From Acidobacteriota bacterium (GTDB lineage: Bacteria > Acidobacteriota > Terriglobia > Terriglobales > SCQP01), in assembly GCA_021818955.1 (NCBI GenBank), contig JAKASR010000009.1:1-64000 (forward strand): DNA of 64,000 bases, in the 5' to 3' direction. Positions 593 through 58,040 of this stretch are shown here, one piece after another (positions within the stretch are counted from its first letter, which is position 1; each line of letters begins with the position of its first letter). Below the pieces are notes generated by a model that saw nothing but the letters and a program-made list of their open reading frames with translations, was not told where the DNA came from and did no database searches. Made by a program: the position numbers and the translations under genes.

Positions 593-2095
593 ATGAAATG
601 CATGGCTATCCCGACCCCGAAGCCGGTTCGCGCTGATGCCGGGCAGGAATACGAACCGGTAATCGGACTCGAAGTGCATGTGCAATTGAACACCCGGTCG
701 AAGGCATTTTGCGCCTGCTCTACGCGTTTTGGCGCGCCGCCCAACAGCCAAACCTGCCCTGTCTGCCTGGGACTGCCCGGCGCCATGCCGGTGCTGAACC
801 GGGAAGCCGTGGTCAAGGCGGTCGCGGCGGGACTAGCGCTCGGCTGCAATATTGCGCCCCGTTCGATATTTGCGCGAAAAAACTATTTTTATCCCGATCT
901 GCCCAAGGGTTATCAAATCAGCCAGTATGACCTGCCCTTGGCCCAGCATGGCGGCCTGGAAATTCCCGATCCCGCGGGCAAGGACGCAGGCAAAACCAAA
1001 CGCATTGGCATCACGCGCGTGCACCTGGAGGAAGACGCCGGAAAAAGCATGCATGAGGGCCATGCTGATTCCGACCGTTACTCCTATGTGGATTTAAACC
1101 GCTCCGGCGTTCCCTTGATCGAAATCGTCTCCGAGCCCGATCTGCGCTCTCCGGAAGAAGCCCACGCCTACTTGACGCGATTGAAAGAAGTGATGCTTTA
1201 CCTCGATGTTTCCGATTGCAACATGGAGGAAGGCAGCCTGCGCTGCGACGCCAATGTCAGCATCCGGCCGCGCGGGTCGCGGGAATTCGGCGAAAAAATC
1301 GAAATCAAGAACCTGAACTCGTTCCGTTTTCTGCAGCAGGCGCTGGAACATGAAATCGAGCGGCAGGCGGAAGTCGTCACCGGCGGCGGCAAACTCAACC
1401 AGGAAACCCGGCTCTACGATCCCTCAACCGGCAAAACTTCGGTCATGCGCTCGAAAGAGCATGCGCATGATTACCGCTATTTCCCCGAGCCCGACCTGCC
1501 GCCGCTGGAAATTGCCGATGCCTGGCGCGACGAGATTGCCGCCAGCTTGCCGGAACTGCCGCAAGCCAAACGCCGGCGCTGGCAGCGCGATTGGAAACTG
1601 CCGGCCTACGATACCGAAGTGCTGACCTCCAGCCCGGCGCTGGCCGCCTACACCGAATCCGCCGCCGGGAAATCGAAAAACCCCCAAGGCGTCGCTCATT
1701 GGATCATGGGCGAGCTTTCCGCCGTGATGAAAGCCAGCGGCGGCGACTGGAGCCAGCCGCCGGCGCCGCCGGCGCATATCGCGGAGCTGGTGGAGTTGGT
1801 GGACGCAGGCACAATCTCCGGCAAGATGGCCAAGCAGATCTTTGAAACCATGGTGGCCCAGGGGCAATCTCCCCGCCAAATTGTGGAACAAAGCGGGGTT
1901 CGCCAGATCACCGATCCCGCCGCAGTGGATGCGATTATTGCCGAAGTCCTGGCGGCCAACCCGCGGCAAGTCGAGCAATATCGCAGCGGGAAAGTTGCCG
2001 TGCTGGGGTTTCTTGTCGGCCAAGTCATGAAAGCCTCGCGTGGACAGGCCAATCCCGGACTGGCGCAGGAGAGGCTAAAAGCGAAACTCGGCTGA
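593..2095 (+). CDS. gatB: Aspartyl/glutamyl-tRNA(Asn/Gln) amidotransferase subunit B
   Basis: GatB (500 residues, normal length) binds mischarged Glu-tRNA(Gln) or Asp-tRNA(Asn) and, with GatA and GatC, converts it to the amide form using glutamine-derived ammonia. The N-terminal part carries the family block YEPVIGLEVHVQL and the zinc-site cysteines (CACSTRFG, then CPVCLGLPG). Next come ARKNYFYPDLPKGYQISQYD, the conserved SLRCDANVSIRP and EIKNLNSFRF segments, and a C-terminal tRNA-binding YqeY-like domain from about residue 350. ATG at 593 and 602 are both usable starts. gatA and gatC are not nearby, so the subunits are not in one operon here. Confidence 0.97.
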   Translation: MKCMAIPTPKPVRADAGQEYEPVIGLEVHVQLNTRSKAFCACSTRFGAPPNSQTCPVCLGLPGAMPVLNREAVVKAVAAGLALGCNIAPRSIFARKNYFYPDLPKGYQISQYDLPLAQHGGLEIPDPAGKDAGKTKRIGITRVHLEEDAGKSMHEGHADSDRYSYVDLNRSGVPLIEIVSEPDLRSPEEAHAYLTRLKEVMLYLDVSDCNMEEGSLRCDANVSIRPRGSREFGEKIEIKNLNSFRFLQQALEHEIERQAEVVTGGGKLNQETRLYDPSTGKTSVMRSKEHAHDYRYFPEPDLPPLEIADAWRDEIAASLPELPQAKRRRWQRDWKLPAYDTEVLTSSPALAAYTESAAGKSKNPQGVAHWIMGELSAVMKASGGDWSQPPAPPAHIAELVELVDAGTISGKMAKQIFETMVAQGQSPRQIVEQSGVRQITDPAAVDAIIAEVLAANPRQVEQYRSGKVAVLGFLVGQVMKASRGQANPGLAQERLKAKLG

Positions 2096-2110
2096 TCGCC
2101 TGCGAAGGCG

Positions 2111-2125
2111 CGGGCCTCCGGCCCG
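2111..2125 (+). terminator. Possible terminator hairpin after gatB
   Basis: CGGGCC-TCC-GGCCCG forms a 6-bp GC-only stem with a 3-nt loop 15 bases after the gatB stop codon. It is followed only by TTCTTG, not a real T tract. It may act as a weak or Rho-assisted terminator. Confidence 0.35.
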
Positions 2126-2167
2126 TTCTTGTGATTGCACTAAGCCGCCAGCTCATACTTTTTCAAC

Positions 2168-2470
2168 ATGTTTGCGCAGCATTTAAGAATTCAACTCGCC
2201 GGCGAAACGTCTTCCCGTTCCTGCCCGCTGCGCTACCTCGACAGCTTCGCAATGCGCAGTTTTACCGGGGAAACGCGATTTGACGAAATCCTGCCGGTTG
2301 CTGACGGGCAGCTGGAAGCCGGGTTTCGCGTGCCGCTGGACGAATTGGGCGCCGCGCTGGAGGATTGGTTCAGGCGCAAAGGGTATTTAAACGCCGGAGA
2401 AAAAGTCGTTATCTCCCGCCTGGAAAACAGATGGGCGGCAAAAGACGCGGCGGAATCGAGCGCGCGATAA
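2168..2470 (+). CDS. Hypothetical protein, 100 residues
   Basis: I do not recognise this protein. It starts at an ATG without a strong ribosome binding site and contains no signal peptide or membrane segment. The middle (about residues 30-75) alternates acidic and hydrophobic residues with a GFRVPLDELGAALEDWF stretch that should be helical, and the tail is charged. It lies just after gatB and its stop codon is 4 bp before the ATG of the NUDIX reading frame, so the two are probably co-transcribed. Confidence 0.6.
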   Translation: MFAQHLRIQLAGETSSRSCPLRYLDSFAMRSFTGETRFDEILPVADGQLEAGFRVPLDELGAALEDWFRRKGYLNAGEKVVISRLENRWAAKDAAESSAR

Positions 2471-2474
2471 GCCG

Positions 2475-3170
2475 ATGGAAGCACAAGAGCATCGCCGAGG
2501 TGCGGCACGGCCGCTTTTACTTTTAGGCGCTGACGCTTTCGCCAAGGTCCGGCCGAAACCGGACGCAGGGCGAATACTCATGGCGGCCGAAAGTTTATTG
2601 TCGTTCATCGGCGCGGGACCTAATAGGAACCCCGCGCTTCGGCCTGCGATTTCGGACGAAGACTGCTGTCCGACTCGGCCGTTAACGCTTCTCGAGCGTA
2701 AAACCGGTTTGATTTCTTGGGAGCGGCTGGGGCCGAAGCTTTTCCACCTCGCCTCCGACGTGTTTACCGCGATTTATGGCCGATTTCCGGTTTTTGGAGA
2801 ACTGCGCTCCGCGGCAGGCATTATTTTTTCAGGAGACGCGGTGTGGATGGTCGTGCGCAGCGATGGCCGCGGGCGGTGTTTTCCCGGCGGCATATCCTCA
2901 TTTCGCGAAAACGAAGGAGTAACGCTGCGGCGGGAAGTGCAGGAAGAGACGGGATTGGAAATCGTCTCCAGCCGCTTGCTTTGGACCTACCACAGCCATG
3001 TTTATCTACCTAGCCAAGTTGCAGTATTTCTAGCCGAAGCCCAAGGCACGCCGCGCGATTCCTGGGAAGGCCGGGTGGAACTGGTACCCAGGTCCGAACT
3101 CCGCAAGAACCTGTTCGCTATCCATCAACCTATTGCGGACTATTTAGAAACCGGGGAAATGCACGCCTAA
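2475..3170 (+). CDS. NUDIX hydrolase with a repeat element inserted in frame near its N-terminus
   Basis: Residues from about 72 to 231 form a NUDIX domain, which hydrolyses nucleoside diphosphates linked to another group. The Nudix box is recognisable as GGISSFRENEGVTLRREVQEETG: the GX5E spacing is not perfect but the REVQEETG core is intact. The ATG at 2475 is 4 bp after the previous gene and encodes nine residues. Then exactly 63 codons of repeat R1 are read through in frame, then the NUDIX part. If the ancestral gene began at this ATG, the repeat is an in-frame insertion. Alternatively translation starts after the repeat (TTG at 2709) or within it (ATG at 2580). The catalytic part looks intact. 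Substrate unknown. Confidence 0.75.
   Translation: MEAQEHRRGAARPLLLLGADAFAKVRPKPDAGRILMAAESLLSFIGAGPNRNPALRPAISDEDCCPTRPLTLLERKTGLISWERLGPKLFHLASDVFTAIYGRFPVFGELRSAAGIIFSGDAVWMVVRSDGRGRCFPGGISSFRENEGVTLRREVQEETGLEIVSSRLLWTYHSHVYLPSQVAVFLAEAQGTPRDSWEGRVELVPRSELRKNLFAIHQPIADYLETGEMHA
2502..2690 (+). repeat. Dispersed repeat R, copy R1 (189 bp, inside NUDIX ORF)
   Basis: Full copy of the basic 189-bp form. It starts with GCGGCACGGCCGCTTTTAC and ends with CTCGGCCGTTAACGCTT. Three hairpins are visible: GCGGC-ACG-GCCGC at the 5' end, GTCCGG-CCGAAA-CCGGAC, and GCGCGGG paired with CCCGCGC around an ACCTAATAGGAAC loop. It is 63 codons long and open in the frame of the surrounding NUDIX gene. Confidence 0.95.
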
Positions 3171-3185
3171 TCGAGCTTCCAGGAG

Positions 3186-3372
3186 GCGGCACGGCCGCTT
3201 TTACTTTTAGGCGCTGACGCTTTCGCCAAGGTCCGGCCGAAACCGGACGCAGGGCGAATACTCAAGGATACCGAAAATTATTGTCGTTCATAGGCGCGGG
3301 ACCTAATAGGAACCCCGCGCTTCGGCCTGCGATTTTGGACGAAACTACTGCCCGACTCGGCCGTTAACGCTT
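3186..3372 (+). repeat. Dispersed repeat R, copy R2 (187 bp)
   Basis: Full-length copy in the same orientation as R1, starting 16 bp after the NUDIX stop codon. It differs by scattered substitutions and two single-base deletions, making it the only full non-degenerate copy whose length is not a multiple of three. With the following 170 bp it fills the gap to the zinc-ribbon gene. Confidence 0.93.
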
Positions 3373-3542
3373 CCGGTATAGAATGAATTGATTGCCGGCG
3401 ACCGGGGCTGCTTTTTCGCCGCAATCCTTGAAAAATGTGTATCTTTAGGGAAGCGGGAAATCCCCCGGAACGGATTGCAATCCCGCCAAAAATGCCAAAA
3501 AATTAGGGGGAGCATACCCCCGCCGGAAATGTAGGAGGCATC

Positions 3543-3827
3543 ATGGCTCTGTGTCCGAAATGTGAGGCCGATCTCGACCTGGACGAAGAGGAAGCGAGCG
3601 AGGGTGCAATGATTACCTGTCCCGATTGCGGCGCCGATTACGAGGTGGTGAACGCACAACCACTTGAACTGGAAGCGCAGGACGATGAGGAACTGGAGGA
3701 CGACGCAGAAGATTTGGACGAATACGACGACGATGATGATGATGATGACGACGATGATGAGGAAGATCTAGACGAGGACGAAGACGATTACGACGAAGAC
3801 GAGGACGAGGACGAAGATTACGGATGA
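3543..3827 (+). CDS. LysW-like zinc-ribbon protein with polyacidic tail
   Basis: The first 45 residues contain two CxxC pairs (CPKCEADLDLDEEEASEG, then CPDCGADYEVV), which should bind one zinc ion as a ribbon. The layout, including the following PLELE, matches the N-terminal part of the amino-group carrier LysW. Residues 46-94 are almost only Asp and Glu, with a run of eleven Asp encoded by GAT/GAC triplets. LysW ends in an EDWGE-type tail whose last Glu carries the substrate; here the tail ends DEDYG, so a carrier role is doubtful. It starts at an ATG with AGGAGG 6 bp upstream. The next gene overlaps its stop by 4 bp (ATGA). Function unknown; a soluble acidic zinc protein is all that can be said. 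Confidence 0.8.
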   Translation: MALCPKCEADLDLDEEEASEGAMITCPDCGADYEVVNAQPLELEAQDDEELEDDAEDLDEYDDDDDDDDDDDEEDLDEDEDDYDEDEDEDEDYG

Positions 3828-7467: not shown

Positions 7468-7689
7468 GCGGCACGGCCGCTTTTACTTTTAGGCGCTGAC
7501 GCTTTCGCCAAGGTCCGGCCGAAACCAGACGCATTGCAAATACTCATGGCTGCCGAAAGTTTAATGTCATTCATAGGCGCTGGACCTAATAGCAACCCCG
7601 CGCGAAAGCGGCCTGCGGGCATGGTTAGAGGCAATTTCTTTGAAATTGCCAAGGACGAAAACTGCTGTCCGACTCGGCCGTTAACGCTT
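7468..7689 (+). repeat. Dispersed repeat R, copy R3 (222 bp)
   Basis: Full copy. Compared with the 189-bp form it carries one extra hairpin unit (GCAATTTC-TTT-GAAATTGC) placed after the central hairpin. Its length is 74 codons and the plus-strand frame used in R1 is open through the whole copy. It lies 71 bp after ccmD. Confidence 0.94.
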
Positions 7690-7722: not shown

Positions 7723-7800
7723 GCGGCACGGCCGCTTTTACTTTTAGGCGCTGACGCTTTCGCAAAGGTCCGGCCGAAACCGGACGCAGGGCGAATACTC
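7723..7800 (+). repeat. Dispersed repeat R, copy R4 (5' half only)
   Basis: Only the first 78 bases of the repeat are present, up to GCGAATACTC. The 3' half is replaced by unrelated sequence. It starts 33 bp after R3 ends, giving a direct tandem pair, and stops 15 bp before the start codon of the next gene. It therefore occupies the usual promoter and ribosome-binding region of that gene. Confidence 0.92.
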
Positions 7801-9098: not shown

Positions 9099-9320
9099 GC
9101 GGCACGGCCGCTTTTACTTTTAGGCGCTGACGCTTTCGCCAAGGTCCGGCCGAAACCGGACGCAGGGCGAATACTCATGGCTGCCGACAGTTTATCGTCG
9201 TTAATAAGCGCGGGACCTAATAGGAACCCCGCACGAAAGCGGCCTGCGGGCATTGCTTGAAGCAATTTCTTCGAAATTGCCAATGACGAATACTGCTGTC
9301 CGACTCGGCCGTTAACGCTT
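9099..9320 (+). repeat. Dispersed repeat R, copy R5 (222 bp)
   Basis: Full copy with one extra hairpin unit (GCAATTTC-TTC-GAAATTGC) after the central hairpin, as in R3. A TGA interrupts the plus-strand frame within that unit. With the next 90 bp it fills the gap between the permease and the glycosidase. A CTATAGTTTATAG stretch soon after the repeat may hold a -10 box. Confidence 0.94.
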
Positions 9321-13739: not shown

Positions 13740-13818
13740 GCGGCACGGCCGCTTTTACTTTTAGGCGCTAACGCTTTCGCAAAGGTCCGGCCGAAACCGG
13801 ACGCAGGGCGAATACTCA
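13740..13818 (+). repeat. Dispersed repeat R, copy R6 (5' half only)
   Basis: The first 79 bases of the repeat, ending GCGAATACTCA, the same breakpoint as in R4 and R12. It lies between two minus-strand genes (purC and CvpA), so its orientation is opposite to local transcription. Confidence 0.92.
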
Positions 13819-14901: not shown

Positions 14902-15246
14902 GCGGCTCGGCCGCTTTTACTTTTAGGCGCTGACGCTTTCGCCAAGGTCCGGCCGAAACCGGACGTAGGGCGAATACTCATGGCTGCCGGGCATTGCCGG
15001 GCGCAATTCCTGCGGAATTGCCGGCTTGCCGGGCGCAATTCCTGCGGAATTGCCGGCTTGCCTGGCGCAATTCCTGCGGAATTGCTTGGTATTGTCGTTA
15101 ATAGGCGCGGGGCCTAATAGGAACCCCGCGCGAAAGCGGCCTGCGGGCATGGCTTGAGGCAATTTCTTCGAAATTGAAAATGTTTAGGCAATTTCTTCGA
15201 AATTGCCCATGACGAAAACTGCTGTCCGACTCGGACGTTAACGCTT
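14902..15246 (+). repeat. Dispersed repeat R, copy R7 (345 bp, expanded)
   Basis: The longest copy. Both ends match the other copies. The middle holds three tandem hairpin units before the central hairpin and two (GCAATTTC-TTC-GAAATTG) after it. Length is 115 x 3. It fills almost all of the gap between purC and the ADOP permease gene, which start divergently on either side of it. Confidence 0.94.
14993..15085 (+). repeat. Three tandem 32-bp hairpin units inside R7
   Basis: GCGCAATTCC recurs at 15001, 15033 and 15065, a period of exactly 32 bp. Each unit contains GCAATTCC-TGC-GGAATTGC, an 8-bp stem with a 3-nt loop. Units are nearly identical, which points to recent tandem expansion. Confidence 0.9.
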
Positions 15247-15278: not shown

Positions 15279-17735
15279 ATGGGCGCGTATATAGGTAACA
15301 TGCGGCTGCAGAATGGGGTGAAACCGGCCTGGAGAGCGTTACGCGCCAATCCCGCCGTCAGCCTGATCGCCATGGCCACGCTGGCCTTGGGCATTGGCGC
15401 CAATACGGCGATATTCAGCGTGGTGGATGCGGTGCTGCTGCGTCCGCTGCCATACCCGCATCCCGGCCAGCTCGTTGAAGTGCGGGAACGGACGCCGCGC
15501 TTTTCCGCCATGTCGGATTCACTGCCCGACTATTACGATTGGCGAAAGCAGAACCAGGTCTTCAGCCATCTCGCCGCCTGGCAATGGGCGGGCTACAACC
15601 TGACCGGCCCGCGGCGGGAGCCCAAGGTCATTCAAGCGCTGAATGTCACCGCCAATCTTTTCCCGACGCTGGGGGTGCGACCCTACCTCGGGCGCAATTT
15701 CAAACCGGCCGACGACCAGCCGGGCGCGCCGCGGGTGGCGATGCTCGGCTACCGGCTCTGGTCGCGGGAGTTCGGCGCCAACCCGCGGCTGCCGGGCAAG
15801 ACCATCGTTCTCGATGGCCAGGCCTATAGCGTAATCGGGGTGATGCCGCCGGGCTTCGATTTTCCCGGCAAGACGCGGCTCTGGGTATCGCTAGGCGCGT
15901 TGCGGGCCAGCAACCCATGTTTGCACAGCCGGGGCTGTCATCCCGGCATCAGCGCCCTGGGACGGCTGAGGCCGGGGGTAAGCCTGGCGAGGGCGCAGAG
16001 CGAGATGTCGGCGATTGCGGCGCGGCTGGCGGCCGCTTATCCCAAATCCAACACCTCGGTCGGCGTAGAGCTGATGCGATACCAGCAATGGATGGTGCGG
16101 GGCTCGGCCAAGGGTTTATGGATGCTGCTGGGCGCGGTGGGGCTGATGCTGCTGATCGCCTGCGCCAACATCGCCAATTTATTGCTGGCGCGGGCGGAGG
16201 GACGGCGGAAGGAATTCGCCATTCGGGCGGCGTTGGGGGCAACGCGCTGGCAAATCGTTCGGCAACTGTTAGGCGAGAGCCTGGGGCTGGCGCTGGCCGG
16301 CGGCGGGCTGGGGTTAGTGCTGGCGTTGCTGGGGATGCATTTCGCCCAACCGCTTTTACCCAAAGATTTGCCGCGCGCCACCAGCCTGGGCGTGGATTGG
16401 CGGGTGTTGTTGTTCAGCCTGAGCGCGGCCCTGCTGTGCGGAATCTTATTCGGGCTGGCGCCAGCCTGGCTGCAAGATAGCCGGGGCTTAAGCGAGAGCC
16501 TCAATGAAGGCGGCCGGGAAAGCCATGGCGGCGGACACCGGCTCCGCGGAGCGCTGGTAGCGGGCGAGATGGCGCTGGCGCTGCTGCTGCTGGCCGGCGC
16601 CGGCCTGCTACTACGCAGCTTTTACCTGCTCATCGCCTCCGGCCCGGGCTTTGACCCGGCGCAGAAGTTGACCTTCACCGTGGGGCTGCCCGACCGGCAA
16701 TATCACCAAGACGCGCAGCAGATCGAATTCTATCGCGCAGCGTTGGCCAAACTCGCCGCCATTCCCGGCGTGACCCGAGCGGCGTTGATCATGCCACTGC
16801 CTTTCAGCGGCAGCGACTGGGAAAACACTTTTCAATTGCCGGACCGCGCGCCATTTCCGCCGGGCAAGGAACCGCTTACGGATTTTGCCATGGCCAGCCC
16901 GGGCTATTTTCGGGCAATGAAAATTCCCCTGCTGCGGGGACGGAATTTCCGCCCGACCGACACCGAGAAGGCGCCGCCGGTGGCCATCGTAGATACGGTT
17001 TTTGCCCGGCGTTATTGGCCGGGGCAAAGCCCGCTGGGCAAGCAGGTGGAATTCGGCCGCGGAACCAAAGATCAAAAGATCATGACCATTGTGGGGATGG
17101 TGCGGCACATCAAGCTCGAAGGCCTGGCGGGCAGCTCGATTGTCGACCGCCTGCCGGAGTTGTATGTCCCCTATCGGCAACAAGCCAACACCGCCATGAC
17201 CTTCGTGCTGCGCGCCGGAGGCGCGGTATCGCCGCTATCTTTACTGCGGCCGGCGGAGGAGCAAATCCACACGCTCGACCCCAATCTGGCGGTGGCCGAA
17301 ATGCATACGATGGGCGCGCTGCTTTCCACCGCCATGGCGCCACGGAGGCTGGCGTTGATCTTGACTTCCAGCTTCGCCGGCTTATCGCTACTGCTGGCAG
17401 CGGTGGGCATTTACGGAGTAATTTCCTACAGCGTGGCGCAGCGGCAGCACGAGTTGGGGGTGCGCATGGCGCTAGGCGCGCAGCGCGGCTCGATTCTGCG
17501 GCTGGTGCTGGGCGAAGCCTTGCGGCTGACTTGCATCGGCGCCGGCGCGGGCCTGGCGGCGGCGCTGGCGCTGGGAAAAACCCTGAGCAGCTTTTTATTT
17601 AGCGTCCACGCCTACGATCCGCTAACGCTCAGCGCGGGGCTGGGGTTTCTCTTCGCGGTGGCGGTGTTGGCCAGCTATCTGCCGGCCCGCCGCGGCGCCG
17701 AGAGCGACCCGGCGCGGTTGCTGAAAAGCCTGTAA
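15279..17735 (+). CDS. ADOP-type ABC transporter permease (MacB/FtsX-like)
   Basis: An 818-residue membrane protein of the acidobacterial duplicated orphan permease type. The N-terminal part holds [30 protein letters not shown], the usual first helix block. It is followed by a MacB-like periplasmic domain with [12 protein letters not shown] and a first FtsX unit ([29 protein letters not shown]). A second periplasmic domain and a second FtsX unit ([27 protein letters not shown]) complete it. No ATPase gene is adjacent, hence 'orphan'. ATG at 15279 and 15300 are both possible. Substrate unknown; related MacB systems export peptides or signal molecules. Confidence 0.92.
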
Positions 17736-17793
17736 CAGAAAGGCCAGAGGCCGGTCCAGGCTCATAGGCTGAGGCCGTTCGGGTCGTATTCAC

Positions 17794-20700
17794 TCAACTG
17801 GCAGCCAGGCGGCGAGCTTCTTCCATGCGGACCGAGACGATCCGGGAGACGCCGGACTGGGGCATGGTGACGCCGTAGAGCAGGGGGATAATTTCCATGG
17901 TGCGGCGGCTGTGGGTAATGATGACGAACTGAGTCGTAGCGCTCATTTCGCGCACCATGCGGGTGAAGCGGCCGATATTGGCCTCATCGAGCGGGGCATC
18001 GACTTCATCAAGGACACAGAAAGGGCTGGGCTGGAAGCGGAAGACGGCGATGAGCAGGGCGAGGGCGGTCATGGCCTTTTCGCCGCCGGAAAGCAAGAGC
18101 GCGTTCTGCAGTTTTTTGCCGGGGGGCTGAGCGACGATATCCACGCCGCCGTCGGGGTTGTTTTCCGCATCGGTAAGACGCAAAAAGCCCTGGCCGCCGC
18201 CAAACAAGGTCTGGAAAGTTTCCTGGAAGGAGGCGTTGATTTTTTCAAACGCCTCGGCAAACTGCTGCCGGGTGACCTGATCCAGTTCCTGGATGGTCTT
18301 TTGAGTATCGGCGATGGAATCCATTAAATCCTGGCGCTGAGTAGCCAGAAACTGATGGCGCTGTTCGGTTTCCTGGAATTCTTCGAGCGCCATCATGTTG
18401 ACCGGGCCGAGGGCTTCGATGCGGGCATGCAGGCCGGCGACGGTTTCCGACTCGGCCTGGAGCCAATCGGCGGCGGGCAGCTCGGCGGGGAGCAGTTCGG
18501 GCGCCAGCTCGAGTCCCAGTTCGTGCAGACCGGTTTCGCGGAGGTGCTGGAAATCGGAGGCGAGGCGGGCAAGGCGGACTTCACAGGCGTTGAGGCGCTG
18601 GCGGGCCTGATCGGCCTGCAGCCGGGCTTGCTGGATGCGGGGCTCCAGCTCGGCGGCGCGGGCGCGCCAGAGGGCCAATTGTTCGGTAGCGCGGGCGCGC
18701 AATTCGGCCTGCTGACGGCCGGCCTCGGCGGCGGCCGCGAGGGCGAGCTGGGCGGTTTCGCGGGCAGCGGCCCACTGGATCATTTCGGCGGCGGCGGCTT
18801 CGTCTTCGGCGGCGCGCGCGGCCTGCTGGGCGGCGAGTTCCTGCGCGTGGGCGCGCAGGCGTTCGAGCCGGCCGGTGGCGGCCTGGGCGCGTTCTTCCAT
18901 GCGGGCGGTAGCGGCGGCGGCTTCGGCTTGCCGCTGGGCCGCGGCTTCGCGCTGCTCGCGGGCATGGAGCAGGCGCTCGGCGGCGGCGTTTTGCTCGGCC
19001 AGCGCGGCCTGCTGGGCGGCTTCGGCGGGTTCCAGCTCGAGGCGCAATTCCGCCAAGCGGGTTTCGCGCTGGCGTAATTCGGCGCGGGCGCGCTCGTGTT
19101 CCAAGGCGCGGGCGGCACGCTGCGATTCCAGCCTTGCCGCTTCCCGGGCGAGATGTTCCAACGCCTGCCGCTCGCCGGCCAAGTCGCGATCCAGCGCGTG
19201 CACGCGCGCATCCAGTTCCCCTTCGGCGGCTTCCAAATTCTGGATTTCGAGCTCCAAGCCGGAGAGCCGGGTTTCGAGCGAGCGCAGGGATTGCTGGCCA
19301 AGGGTTTCCCGGCTGACGGTTTCGCGCAATTCGCGCTTGAGGGTAAGCGGGCCGACGGTCGAGCGGGCGCCGCCGCTGACGGTGAGGTTGTGGAACCATT
19401 CGCCGCCGGCCGTGAGGAAATAGGCTTGCGGGTTGTGGCGCGCCAAGCCGCACGCCTGCTCGGGGCCGGCGGCGATGTAGCCGCTGCCGAGCTTGGGCAA
19501 AATATGCTCCAGCGAACGGCCAAAGCCATTGAGCACGCGCACAAACTGGCGCAGCGGGCGGGGCTGGCCGCTTTCGGCCAGGTTGGGGGAGAAAGGGGCG
19601 CCGGCGGCCGGCTCGGCGGAAAACATCTTCAACTGGGAGTCATCGGGATGCACGAGGAAGGTGACGCGACCTTGCGCATCCTGGCGCACGACGCCCAAGC
19701 CGGCATCGGCGGCCGCCCAGTCTTCGACCACGACGTAGTTCAATTCCTCGCGCAGGAATTCCTCGACCACGGTTTCGTATTCAGGCTCGACTTCGAGGAA
19801 ATCGGCAAGCACGCCCTGGGGGCGAAAGCGGGTTTCGCCGCCGGCAAAAAGGCTGCGCACGGCCTCGCTGCTATAGCCGTGATGAGCAATCATTTCCTCA
19901 AGCGAGCGGCGGCGAGCGCTGGCTTCGGCGAGGCGCGCCTGCAACTCTTCGCGCTCGCACCGGCGTTCCTGGCGTTCGGCGCGCAAGGCGCGCAGCCGCG
20001 CGGCAATTTGACCGGTCTGGGCGCGGACCGCGTCGCAATCGCGCTGCTTGGCCTCAAAACTGAGGCCGAGCTGGCCACGGTGCAGCCCCAAAGCTTCCAA
20101 TTCGCCCTCCAAGCCTTGCAACTCCGACGCCTGGCGCAGAAGCTGGGCCTGGCCGGCAACCGTCACCGCTTCATGCTCGGCAATCTGCTGGCGCAGGATG
20201 GTGGCCTGATTCATGGCTTGCAGCATGCGGGCGCGGGCGGCTTCAATTTCGGTTTCCAGGGCCAGCACGGCGCGGATGACCTGTTCGCCGGCGGCGCGGG
20301 CGGCCAGCTCGTGGGCGCGGGCGGCGGCCAAATCGCGGCTGGCGGCTTCGTCATCGGCCTGAGCGGCGAGGCAGGCATCGGCGGCGCGGGCTTGTTGTCC
20401 GGCCAATTCAGCCAGGATGGATTGCAGCGCGGCGGCACGCCGGGCCAAATCCTGCTGCTGGCGCTCGGCCAGGACCAACTGCCCCTGCAAGCGCTCGGCT
20501 TCCAATTCGAGGCGGTGCAACTCGCTTTCCGCCTGACGCAGGCCGGCCTCGCCCGCCAGCGCCTGGCGCTGGCTGGCGGCGCGCTCGTTTTCCAACTGTT
20601 CGATTTCGCGCTGTCCGGCCTCGTTGGCCCGTTGCGCATCCTGGCGTTCCACTTCCATTTGCCGCCGATCGGCCTCCAGCAGGGCGGCGCGCGCCAGCAG

Positions 20701-30267: not shown

Positions 30268-30486
30268 GCGGCACGGCCGCTTTTACTTTTAGGCGCTGAC
30301 GCTTTCGCAAAGGTCCGGCCGAAACCGGACGCATGGCGAATACGCATGGCTGCCGGGCTTGCCAGGCGCAATTCCCGCGGAATTGCCAATGCTGCAGGCA
30401 ATTGCTTCGAAATTGAGCATGCTGCAGGCAATTTCTCCGAAATTGCCATTGACAAAAACTGCGGTCCGACTCGGCCGTTAAGGCTT
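30268..30486 (+). repeat. Dispersed repeat R, copy R9 (219 bp)
   Basis: Full copy in which the central GC-rich hairpin has been replaced by three tandem hairpin units of about 30 bp joined by GAGCATGCTGCA-like linkers. The first unit has the stem GCAATTCC/GGAATTGC and the third GGCAATTTC/GAAATTGCC. The plus-strand frame is open throughout. Its end is 12 bp from the stop codon of the debranching enzyme gene. Confidence 0.92.
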
Positions 30487-35597: not shown

Positions 35598-35786
35598 GCG
35601 GCACGGCCGCTTTTACTTTTAGGCGCTGACGCTTTCGTAAAGGTCCGGCCGAAACCGGACGCATTGCGAATACTCATGGCTGCCGAAAGTTTATTGTCGT
35701 TAATAGGCGCGGGACCTAATAGGAACCCCGCGCTTCGGCCTGCGATTTCGGACGAAAACTGCTGTCCGACTCGGCCGTTAACGCTT
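35598..35786 (+). repeat. Dispersed repeat R, copy R10 (189 bp, overlaps GT4 gene end)
   Basis: Full copy of the basic form, almost identical to R1. On the minus strand its 3' part is read as the last 22 codons of the glycosyltransferase gene, and a TAG inside the repeat ends that gene. Length is 63 codons. Confidence 0.95.
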
Positions 35787-41489: not shown

Positions 41490-41568
41490 GCGGCTCGGCC
41501 GCTTTTACTTTTAGGCGCTGACGCTTTCGCAAAGGTCCGGCCGAAGCCGGACGCATGGCGAATACTCA
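41490..41568 (+). repeat. Dispersed repeat R, copy R12 (5' half only)
   Basis: The first 79 bases of the repeat, starting GCGGCTCGGCCGC and ending GCGAATACTCA, exactly as in R6. It sits 28 bp beyond the trpS stop codon, with orientation opposite to trpS. Confidence 0.92.
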
Positions 41569-56151: not shown

Positions 56152-56370
56152 GCGGCTCGGCCGCTTTTACTTTTAGGCGCTGACGCTTTCGCAATGGTCC
56201 GGCCGAAACCGGACGCTTTGCGAATACTAATGGAGACCGAAAATTTATTGTCGTTAATAGGCGCGGGACCTAAAAGAAACCCCGCGCTTCAGCTTGCGGG
56301 CATGGCTAGAGGCAATTTCTCCGAAATGGCCAATGACGAATACTGCTGTCCGACTCGGCCGTTAACGCTT
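56152..56370 (+). repeat. Dispersed repeat R, copy R13 (219 bp)
   Basis: Full copy with one extra hairpin unit after the central hairpin (GGCAATTTC-TCC-GAAATGGCC, one mismatch). Both ends are intact and the plus frame is open for all 73 codons. It lies between the convergent ribA and GH144-like genes, 28 bp from the latter's stop. Confidence 0.94.
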
Positions 56371-57821: not shown

Positions 57822-58040
57822 GCGGCACGGCCGCTTTTACTTTTAGACGCTGACGCTTTCGCCAAGGTCCGGCCGAAACCGGACGCATTGCGAATACTCA
57901 TGGCTGCCGGGCATTGCCGGGCGCAATTCCTGCGGAATTGCTTGGTATTGTCGTTCATAGGCGCGGGACCTAATAGAAACCCCGCGCTTCGGCCTGCGAT
58001 TTCGGACGAAAACTGCTGTCCGACTCGGCCGTTAACGCTT
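57822..58040 (+). repeat. Dispersed repeat R, copy R14 (219 bp)
   Basis: Full copy with one extra hairpin unit (GCAATTCC-TGC-GGAATTGC) placed before the central hairpin. On the minus strand it is open and in frame with the GH144-like gene 52 bp away. A terminator lies about 115 bp beyond its 3' end, so a plus-strand transcript through it could be ended there. Confidence 0.94.

What the first reader, a model, noticed from the sequence alone, without database searches (positions are those of the whole stretch)
2475..3170. Repeat inserted in frame into a NUDIX gene; element lengths are multiples of three
R1 is exactly 63 codons and sits between a nine-residue start, 4 bp after the previous gene, and the NUDIX domain. 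Full copies measure 189, 187, 222, 222, 345, 219, 189, 219 and 219 bp: eight of nine are divisible by three. The plus frame used in R1 is open in R3, R9, R10, R13 and others, and a minus-strand frame is open in most copies. This parallels Rickettsia palindromic elements, which enter genes in frame and are translated.
Basis: partly seen in the sequence, partly recalled or inferred. Interest (0 to 1): 0.78.

Follow-up and report, generated by a model that had tools for sequence, protein, structure and literature searches.

The report
Strand-polarised mobile hairpin element inside genes
A bacterium (probably an acidobacterium) carries more than 300 copies of a small hairpin-rich DNA element that almost always point the same way relative to DNA replication; most sit between genes, but a few, apparently including the one reported here, have slipped into protein genes without breaking the reading frame.

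Summary
R1 (2502-2690, 189 bp) lies in frame between nine codons and a NUDIX domain, and none of ten relatives' orthologues has the 63 codons. Three other copies in this genome sit in frame in conserved genes whose orthologues lack them (222 bp in an FG-GAP/ASPIC protein, 78 bp in a PMT_2 glycosyltransferase, 78 bp in a peptidase signal peptide). So the Rickettsia-element parallel holds for behaviour.

The "multiples of three" argument fails genome-wide: 19 of 66 distinct lengths are divisible by three (chance). Two open frames in 189 bp is not rare (10% of shuffles), there is no synonymous excess, and the frame is closed in relatives. What is conserved is hairpin structure, with compensatory changes.

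The element is mobile, non-autonomous and restricted to one bacterial family (334 left ends here). It inserts cleanly, without target duplication, four bases before a G (94% of 217 right flanks), and is oriented with replication: 315 of 328 ends lie on their block's majority strand, and skew indicates the lagging-strand template. No Y1 transposase was found in the host, so the mobilising enzyme is unknown. Whether R1 itself is translated from 2475 is undecided.

The parts
2475..3170 (+). ORF with the in-frame insertion: 9 codons, 63 codons of R1, then the NUDIX protein (231 aa)
2168..2470 (+). Small ORF upstream of NUDIX (downstream of a GatB-like ORF), same arrangement in G001 and G004
2502..2690 (+). 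R1, 189-bp copy of the element; left end GCGGCACGGCCGC, right end CGGCCGTTAACGCTT
2691..2694 (+). Target-side motif NNNG (CTCG) directly after the right end
2580..2582 (+). Alternative ATG start inside R1 (weak SD-like GCAGGG upstream)
   Evidence: one search lists it one base late, as 2581
2709..2711 (+). Alternative TTG start after R1, giving M-ISWERLGPK, comparable with G001 MKRLGPK
2805..3128 (+). NUDIX domain (PF00293, residues 111-218)
3186..3372 (+). R2, 187-bp copy 15 bp after the NUDIX stop; R1 and R2 bracket the gene as direct repeats
7468..7689 (+). Copy, 222 bp, with extra internal hairpin
7723..7800 (+). Solo A unit, 78 bp ending GCGAATACTC, followed by GCTG
9099..9320 (+). Copy, 222 bp
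13740..13817 (+). Solo A unit, followed by AAAG
14902..15246 (+). Copy, 345 bp, extra internal modules
30268..30486 (+). Copy, 219 bp, degenerate right end
35598..35786 (+). Copy, 189 bp, best match to the covariance model
41490..41567 (+). Solo A unit, followed by AACG
56152..56370 (+). Copy, 219 bp
57822..58040 (+). Copy, 219 bp, open antisense in a 572-aa ORF but upstream of that gene's likely true start (MPRRSFLRG...)

Best explanation
R1 is one copy of a non-autonomous mobile element made of short hairpins. Shown: it occurs as a 78-bp unit (A) or as A plus a core, a right end and a variable number of extra hairpins (commonly 189, 219, 222, 249-252 bp). It inserts precisely, with no target duplication and, in the clearest empty site, no loss, four bases 5' of a G in the target. 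Nearly all copies in a given stretch of chromosome share one strand, independent of gene direction. [quoted passage not shown] Insertions that break genes are purged, so most copies are intergenic; a few survive inside genes because the element happens to have one forward and one reverse open frame. R1 is most likely such a survivor, adding 63 residues between the start and the NUDIX domain of a gene that lacked them. The added peptide is probably a tolerated linker, not a functional domain.
For: Copy number and sharp borders. Modularity and solo A. Target: G at +3 in 204 of 217 right flanks (p 4e-86) and 40 of 48 solo A units (p 1e-13); all complete right ends sampled in G001, G003 and G004 also fit. 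No target duplication: left and right flanks do not match at any offset in 89 copies. Clean empty site: G000 joined flanks GYPLELAAN-PPRYDY against G001 GYPRQIAYH-PARYDY, and 8 relatives lack the inserted residues. Further in-frame insertions absent from orthologues: PMT_2 glycosyltransferase and S10 peptidase signal peptide, MRYRAYARSR[26 aa]LAFLFLMSAAWA against G001 MRLRKLCPLATLAAFFFSAPLWS. Strand polarity: 315 of 328 ends on the block majority, simulated maximum 228 of 328; flanking gene strands near random (ss 64, oo 57, so 39, os 35). Replication link: genes codirectional with the elements have GC3 skew -0.008 against -0.124 for opposed genes (p 2e-15), same sign in 15 of 17 contigs. Structure conserved: 9 pairs with double changes against 3.8 shuffled, 95.6% of cells paired. 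Restricted to 5 of 80 genomes in the order, all in one family. R1: 10 orthologues without the 63 codons.
Against: No mobilising enzyme is linked: PF01797 is absent from the host genome, its presence in the family does not track the element, and no Y1 gene found is flanked by element ends. No multicopy autonomous relative appeared in 1.2 Mb of sampled sequence. The lagging-strand inference rests on nucleotide skew in unoriented contigs; C4 and C22 go the other way. For R1, the nine residues are not conserved, ATG2475 has no good Shine-Dalgarno (-2.2 kcal/mol), and alternative starts exist at 2580 and 2709.
Confidence: 0.75

Rival explanations
1. R1 is not translated: the NUDIX gene starts downstream of (TTG2709) or inside (ATG2580) the repeat, and R1 is wholly or partly an insertion in the 5' untranslated or translation-initiation region, like most other copies.
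For: G001 orthologue starts at MKRLGPK, at a point downstream of the insertion. Most copies lie outside called genes, several just upstream of genes; the C6:57822 copy is also open into an ORF but upstream of its likely start. ATG2475 has a weak SD; ATG2580 has a somewhat better one.
Against: G004's protein (MTETRSNLWRRWGPG) extends upstream of the G001 start and aligns with LISWERLGPK, so the ancestral N-terminus probably began upstream. ATG2475 is 4 bp after the upstream ORF's stop, the conserved position. No ATG lies between R1 and the domain.
Confidence: 0.35
2. The copies are RPE-like protein-coding inserts selected for length divisible by three and for an open frame.
For: Frame +0 open in 35 of 35 distinct 189-bp copies, with 0 stop-creating variants against 3.5 expected (P 0.02); several in-frame insertions.
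Against: Synonymous variants 37 against 33.7 expected (P 0.28). Distinct lengths 19 of 66 divisible by three; at least two open frames in 9.6% of shuffles. Forward +0 frame closed in all G001/G004 copies tested. Two further gene-internal insertions (C14:1626, C29:278483) look disruptive.
Confidence: 0.08
3. The repeats are primarily a functional, replication-oriented chromosomal signal or structured RNA, kept by selection, with mobility secondary.
For: Strand polarity of 96% over long domains; structure conserved with compensatory changes.
Against: Absent from sister genera of the same family; insertions inside genes that all relatives lack; a target-site motif on the host side; no Rfam match at threshold; length and modules vary widely.
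Confidence: 0.15
4. The elements are REP/REPIN-like sequences moved by a RAYT (TnpA_REP, Y1 HUH transposase) that the host has since lost or that falls in the missing part of the assembly.
For: Hairpin ends, no duplication, lagging-strand polarity as expected for Y1 enzymes (PMC6006769). G001 and G003 do have Y1 genes.
Against: No PF01797 hit in a 96% complete host genome with low-divergence copies (mean about 4% from consensus); G004, 89% complete, also has none; no element ends near any Y1 gene.
Confidence: 0.3

Closest known systems
Rickettsia palindromic elements (RPE)
   Same: Small repeat of 100-200 bp inserted in frame into unrelated genes and apparently compatible with the proteins (as reviewed in PMC10969869)
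   Different: Here gene-internal copies are a small minority, the frames look accidental, the encoded peptide is not conserved in relatives, and copies are strand-polarised; sequence homology was not tested
REP/REPIN elements with RAYT (TnpA_REP)
   Same: Hundreds of intergenic hairpin copies, variable composites
   Different: 189-bp multi-hairpin unit, no inverted REP pair arrangement seen, no Y1 transposase in the host
IS200/IS605-derived non-autonomous elements (PATE-like)
   Same: No target duplication, hairpin ends, fixed target-side motif, polarity towards the lagging-strand template
   Different: Motif is a single G four bases after the right end rather than a tetranucleotide left of the left end; no tnpA or autonomous parent found
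Enterobacterial RU-1/RU-2/RU-3 small mobile sequences
   Same: Similar size; intergenic repeats with open frames found fused into genes (PMC2759123, abstract)
   Different: Unrelated host phylum; strand polarity and a target motif are not mentioned in the abstract, which is all I read
Pneumococcal BOX elements
   Same: Modular A / variable middle / end design (from general knowledge)
   Different: Different sequence and host; here also a solo A unit

Membership tests
RPE | Inserted in frame within protein genes | tested here: met
   (three genes) and R1
RPE | Element encodes a conserved peptide | tested here: not met
   sense and antisense frames both used; no synonymous excess; frame closed in G001/G004
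RPE | Sequence homology to RPE families | not tested
   no RPE sequence compared
REP/REPIN-RAYT | Y1_Tnp (PF01797) gene in the genome | tested here: not met
   no tracking in the family
REP/REPIN-RAYT | High-copy intergenic hairpins | tested here: met
IS200/IS605-type ssDNA element | Insertion without target duplication or loss | tested here: met
IS200/IS605-type ssDNA element | Orientation tied to replication, lagging-strand template | tested here: met
   skew-based, contigs not closed
IS200/IS605-type ssDNA element | Conserved tetranucleotide immediately left of the left end | tested here: not met
   only weak A preference at -2 and -1; single G at +3 on the right
IS200/IS605-type ssDNA element | TnpA or related autonomous copy | tested here: not met
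   (the latter covers 1.2 of 3.8 Mb)
Classical DDE MITE | Target-site duplication | tested here: not met
Known Rfam RNA | Match above gathering score | tested here: not met
   one search covers R1 and R2 (2000-3600); the only hit is outside them and below its gathering score

The most novel reading that the evidence does not exclude
A family-specific modular hairpin element that is inserted almost exclusively into the lagging-strand template, at a site defined mainly by a G at fixed distance, by machinery other than Y1 (IS200/RAYT) transposases, and that seeds short linker peptides into conserved proteins in both reading senses.
Probability: 0.35. Interest if true: 0.75.

Novelty: new variant of a known kind. 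Interest (0 to 1): 0.58.

Why it matters
In-frame insertion of selfish repeats into proteins is best known from Rickettsia; here it happens in a member of another phylum (probably Acidobacteriota), with exact empty sites in relatives, so the process can be dated and tested. The 96% strand polarity with a near one-base target rule and no recognisable transposase makes the mobilising mechanism an open, directly testable question. The element orientation could also help order contigs by replichore.

Tried and rejected
Rfam search of 2000-3600: nothing relevant. Y1 transposase as mobiliser: absent in the host, no association in the family. The only RVT_1 gene in the host is an RT-Cas1 fusion by inspection, with no element ends nearby and no Rfam hit. 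Viral contigs and plasmids: no match. Multicopy autonomous element in 1.2 Mb: none, only local tandem repeats and one pair of element clusters. Integron attC: considered from the GTTAAC end, rejected by inspection because GTTAACG does not fit GTTRRRY and copies are dispersed on many contigs. Target duplication and coupling-sequence ideas: no flank match, and the C10 empty site has no extra codon. Coding selection on the element: not supported. A fuzzy-regex artefact (best-match mode skips copies) affected; counts were redone with a plain mismatch scan from then on, and the conclusions use the redone numbers, except the target-duplication test, which used the 89-copy subset, and the gene calls, which do not depend on it. 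Structure prediction was not run: the insert lies outside the Pfam domain and a model would not decide translation.

Full report
What was claimed. R1, a repeat at 2502-2690, was said to be inserted in frame in a NUDIX gene; full copies were said to be multiples of three in length; the pattern was likened to Rickettsia palindromic elements.

The locus. ORF 2475-3170 (231 aa) reads MEAQEHRRG, then 63 codons that are exactly R1, then LERKTGLISWERLGPKLF and a NUDIX domain at residues 111-218. It begins 4 bp after a small ORF that follows a GatB-like ORF. A second copy, R2 (3186-3372), starts 15 bp after the stop.

R1 and its orthologues. Ten relatives of the same family have the NUDIX gene and none has the 63 codons. 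In the nearest (G001, 70% identity) the gene starts MKRLGPK; in G004 it starts MTETRSNLWRRWGPG, which aligns with LISWERLGPK of the host. The stretch upstream of the domain is therefore variable, and R1 sits in it. The nine residues are not conserved. ATG2475 is where the gene would be expected to start by synteny, but it has a weak Shine-Dalgarno, and ATG2580 (inside R1) or TTG2709 are alternatives. I judge translation through R1 likely but unproven (about 0.6).

Stronger cases elsewhere. A 222-bp copy lies in the antisense frame inside a 1197-aa FG-GAP/ASPIC protein (contig C10). In eight relatives the residues on either side are adjacent or nearly so, and against G001 (about 79% identity) the joined flanks align without gain or loss: GYPLELAAN-PPRYDY against GYPRQIAYH-PARYDY. 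A 78-bp copy lies inside a PMT_2 glycosyltransferase whose G001 orthologue lacks it. Another 78-bp copy splits the signal peptide of an S10 peptidase, absent from the orthologues examined. In 1.2 Mb screened for copies whose joined flanks are coding on both sides, six copies qualify: four keep the frame (C10, C12, C19, C22) and two (C14:1626, C29:278483) look disruptive. Most copies are outside called genes: 176 of 234 do not overlap a gene and 15 lie inside one, while about 82% of the sequence is coding.

Length and frame. Among 163 distinct copies, 91 lengths are divisible by three, but most belong to a few high-copy classes (189, 219, 222, 249). Among the 66 distinct lengths, 19 are divisible by three, which is chance. 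The 189-bp consensus has two open frames; dinucleotide shuffles do as well or better in 9.6%. Frame +0 is open in all 35 distinct 189-bp copies, yet variants show no synonymous excess (37 against 33.7; P 0.28), and the lack of stop-creating variants (0 against 3.5, P 0.02, one of six frames tested) is weak. In G001 and G004 copies the +0 frame has stops. So the frames look accidental; survivors inside genes are those that happened to fit.

What the element is. The host has 334 left ends and 269 right ends, with none in reversed controls. Anatomy: unit A, 78 bp, GCGGC[A/T]CGGCCGC...GCGAATACTC; a core with GGCGCGGGACCTAATAGGAACCCCGCGC; a right end with a TCGGAC...GTCCGA hairpin and CGGCCGTTAACGCTT; and a variable number of extra hairpins of the types GCAATTCCTGCGGAATTGC and GGCAATTTCTTCGAAATTGCC. 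Unit A also occurs alone with its own end (48 candidates). Relatives G001, G003 and G004 carry diverged versions. A covariance model finds it in 5 of 80 genomes of the order, all in one family and three genera. Structure is conserved with compensatory changes: 9 of 32 pairs, 28 cells against 8.8 in shuffles; slid structures do far worse.

How it inserts. Flanks show no target duplication. The right flank has G at the fourth base in 204 of 217 (94%) and in 40 of 48 solo A units, with weaker A/T then G preference before it and A at -2 and -1 on the left. The complete right ends sampled in G001, G003 and G004 fit the same rule. Copies within a stretch of chromosome share a strand: 315 of 328, against at most 228 of 328 in 5000 simulations. 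Flanking genes are oriented near randomly. Genes codirectional with the elements have a higher GC3 skew (-0.008 against -0.124, p 2e-15), in 15 of 17 contigs. This places the element's top strand on the G-rich, leading-sense strand, which is the strand exposed as lagging-strand template (established knowledge of GC skew). That polarity, precise insertion and hairpin ends are what single-strand transposition of the IS200/IS605 type would give (PMC6006769). But no Y1 transposase is found in the host, its occurrence in the family does not track the element, and none is flanked by element ends. The enzyme is therefore unknown.

Conclusion. The finding points to a real and interesting thing. The in-frame entry is real, best shown outside the window; the Rickettsia parallel holds as behaviour, not as membership; the multiples-of-three argument should be dropped; and the strand polarity with a near one-base target rule and missing transposase is the more surprising feature.

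Noticed in passing
G000 contig C28 about 104.0-106.1 kb, minus strand (L285 220-2316): 698-aa ORF with a reverse transcriptase domain (RVT_1 E 1.7e-30) whose second half looks like Cas1 by inspection: an RT-Cas1 fusion; a 369-aa ORF beside it looks Cas6-like.
   Followed up: partly
G000 contig C29 270-290 kb (L235): Six element copies on the minus strand while the rest of C29 sampled is plus: a local inversion or a misassembly.
   Followed up: no
G000 contig C12 between about 220 and 270 kb: Element orientation switches from plus to minus: a candidate origin or terminus region.
   Followed up: no
window 2502-2690 and 3186-3372: R1 and R2 bracket the NUDIX gene as direct repeats, so recombination between them could delete it.
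   Followed up: no
L174 (G000 C12, glycosyltransferase gene 17695-19434): The same gene that carries a 78-bp insert also ends inside another element copy, which supplies its C-terminal residues and stop.
   Followed up: partly
G000 C22:179-678 and C43:7472-7971: Two 500-bp clusters of element modules, 88% identical, suggest that composites can move or duplicate as a block.
   Followed up: no
L247 3668-5915 (G000 C12, about 273.7-275.9 kb): A stretch of about 2.2 kb with internal tandem repeats of about 276 bp, 85-87% identical.
   Followed up: no
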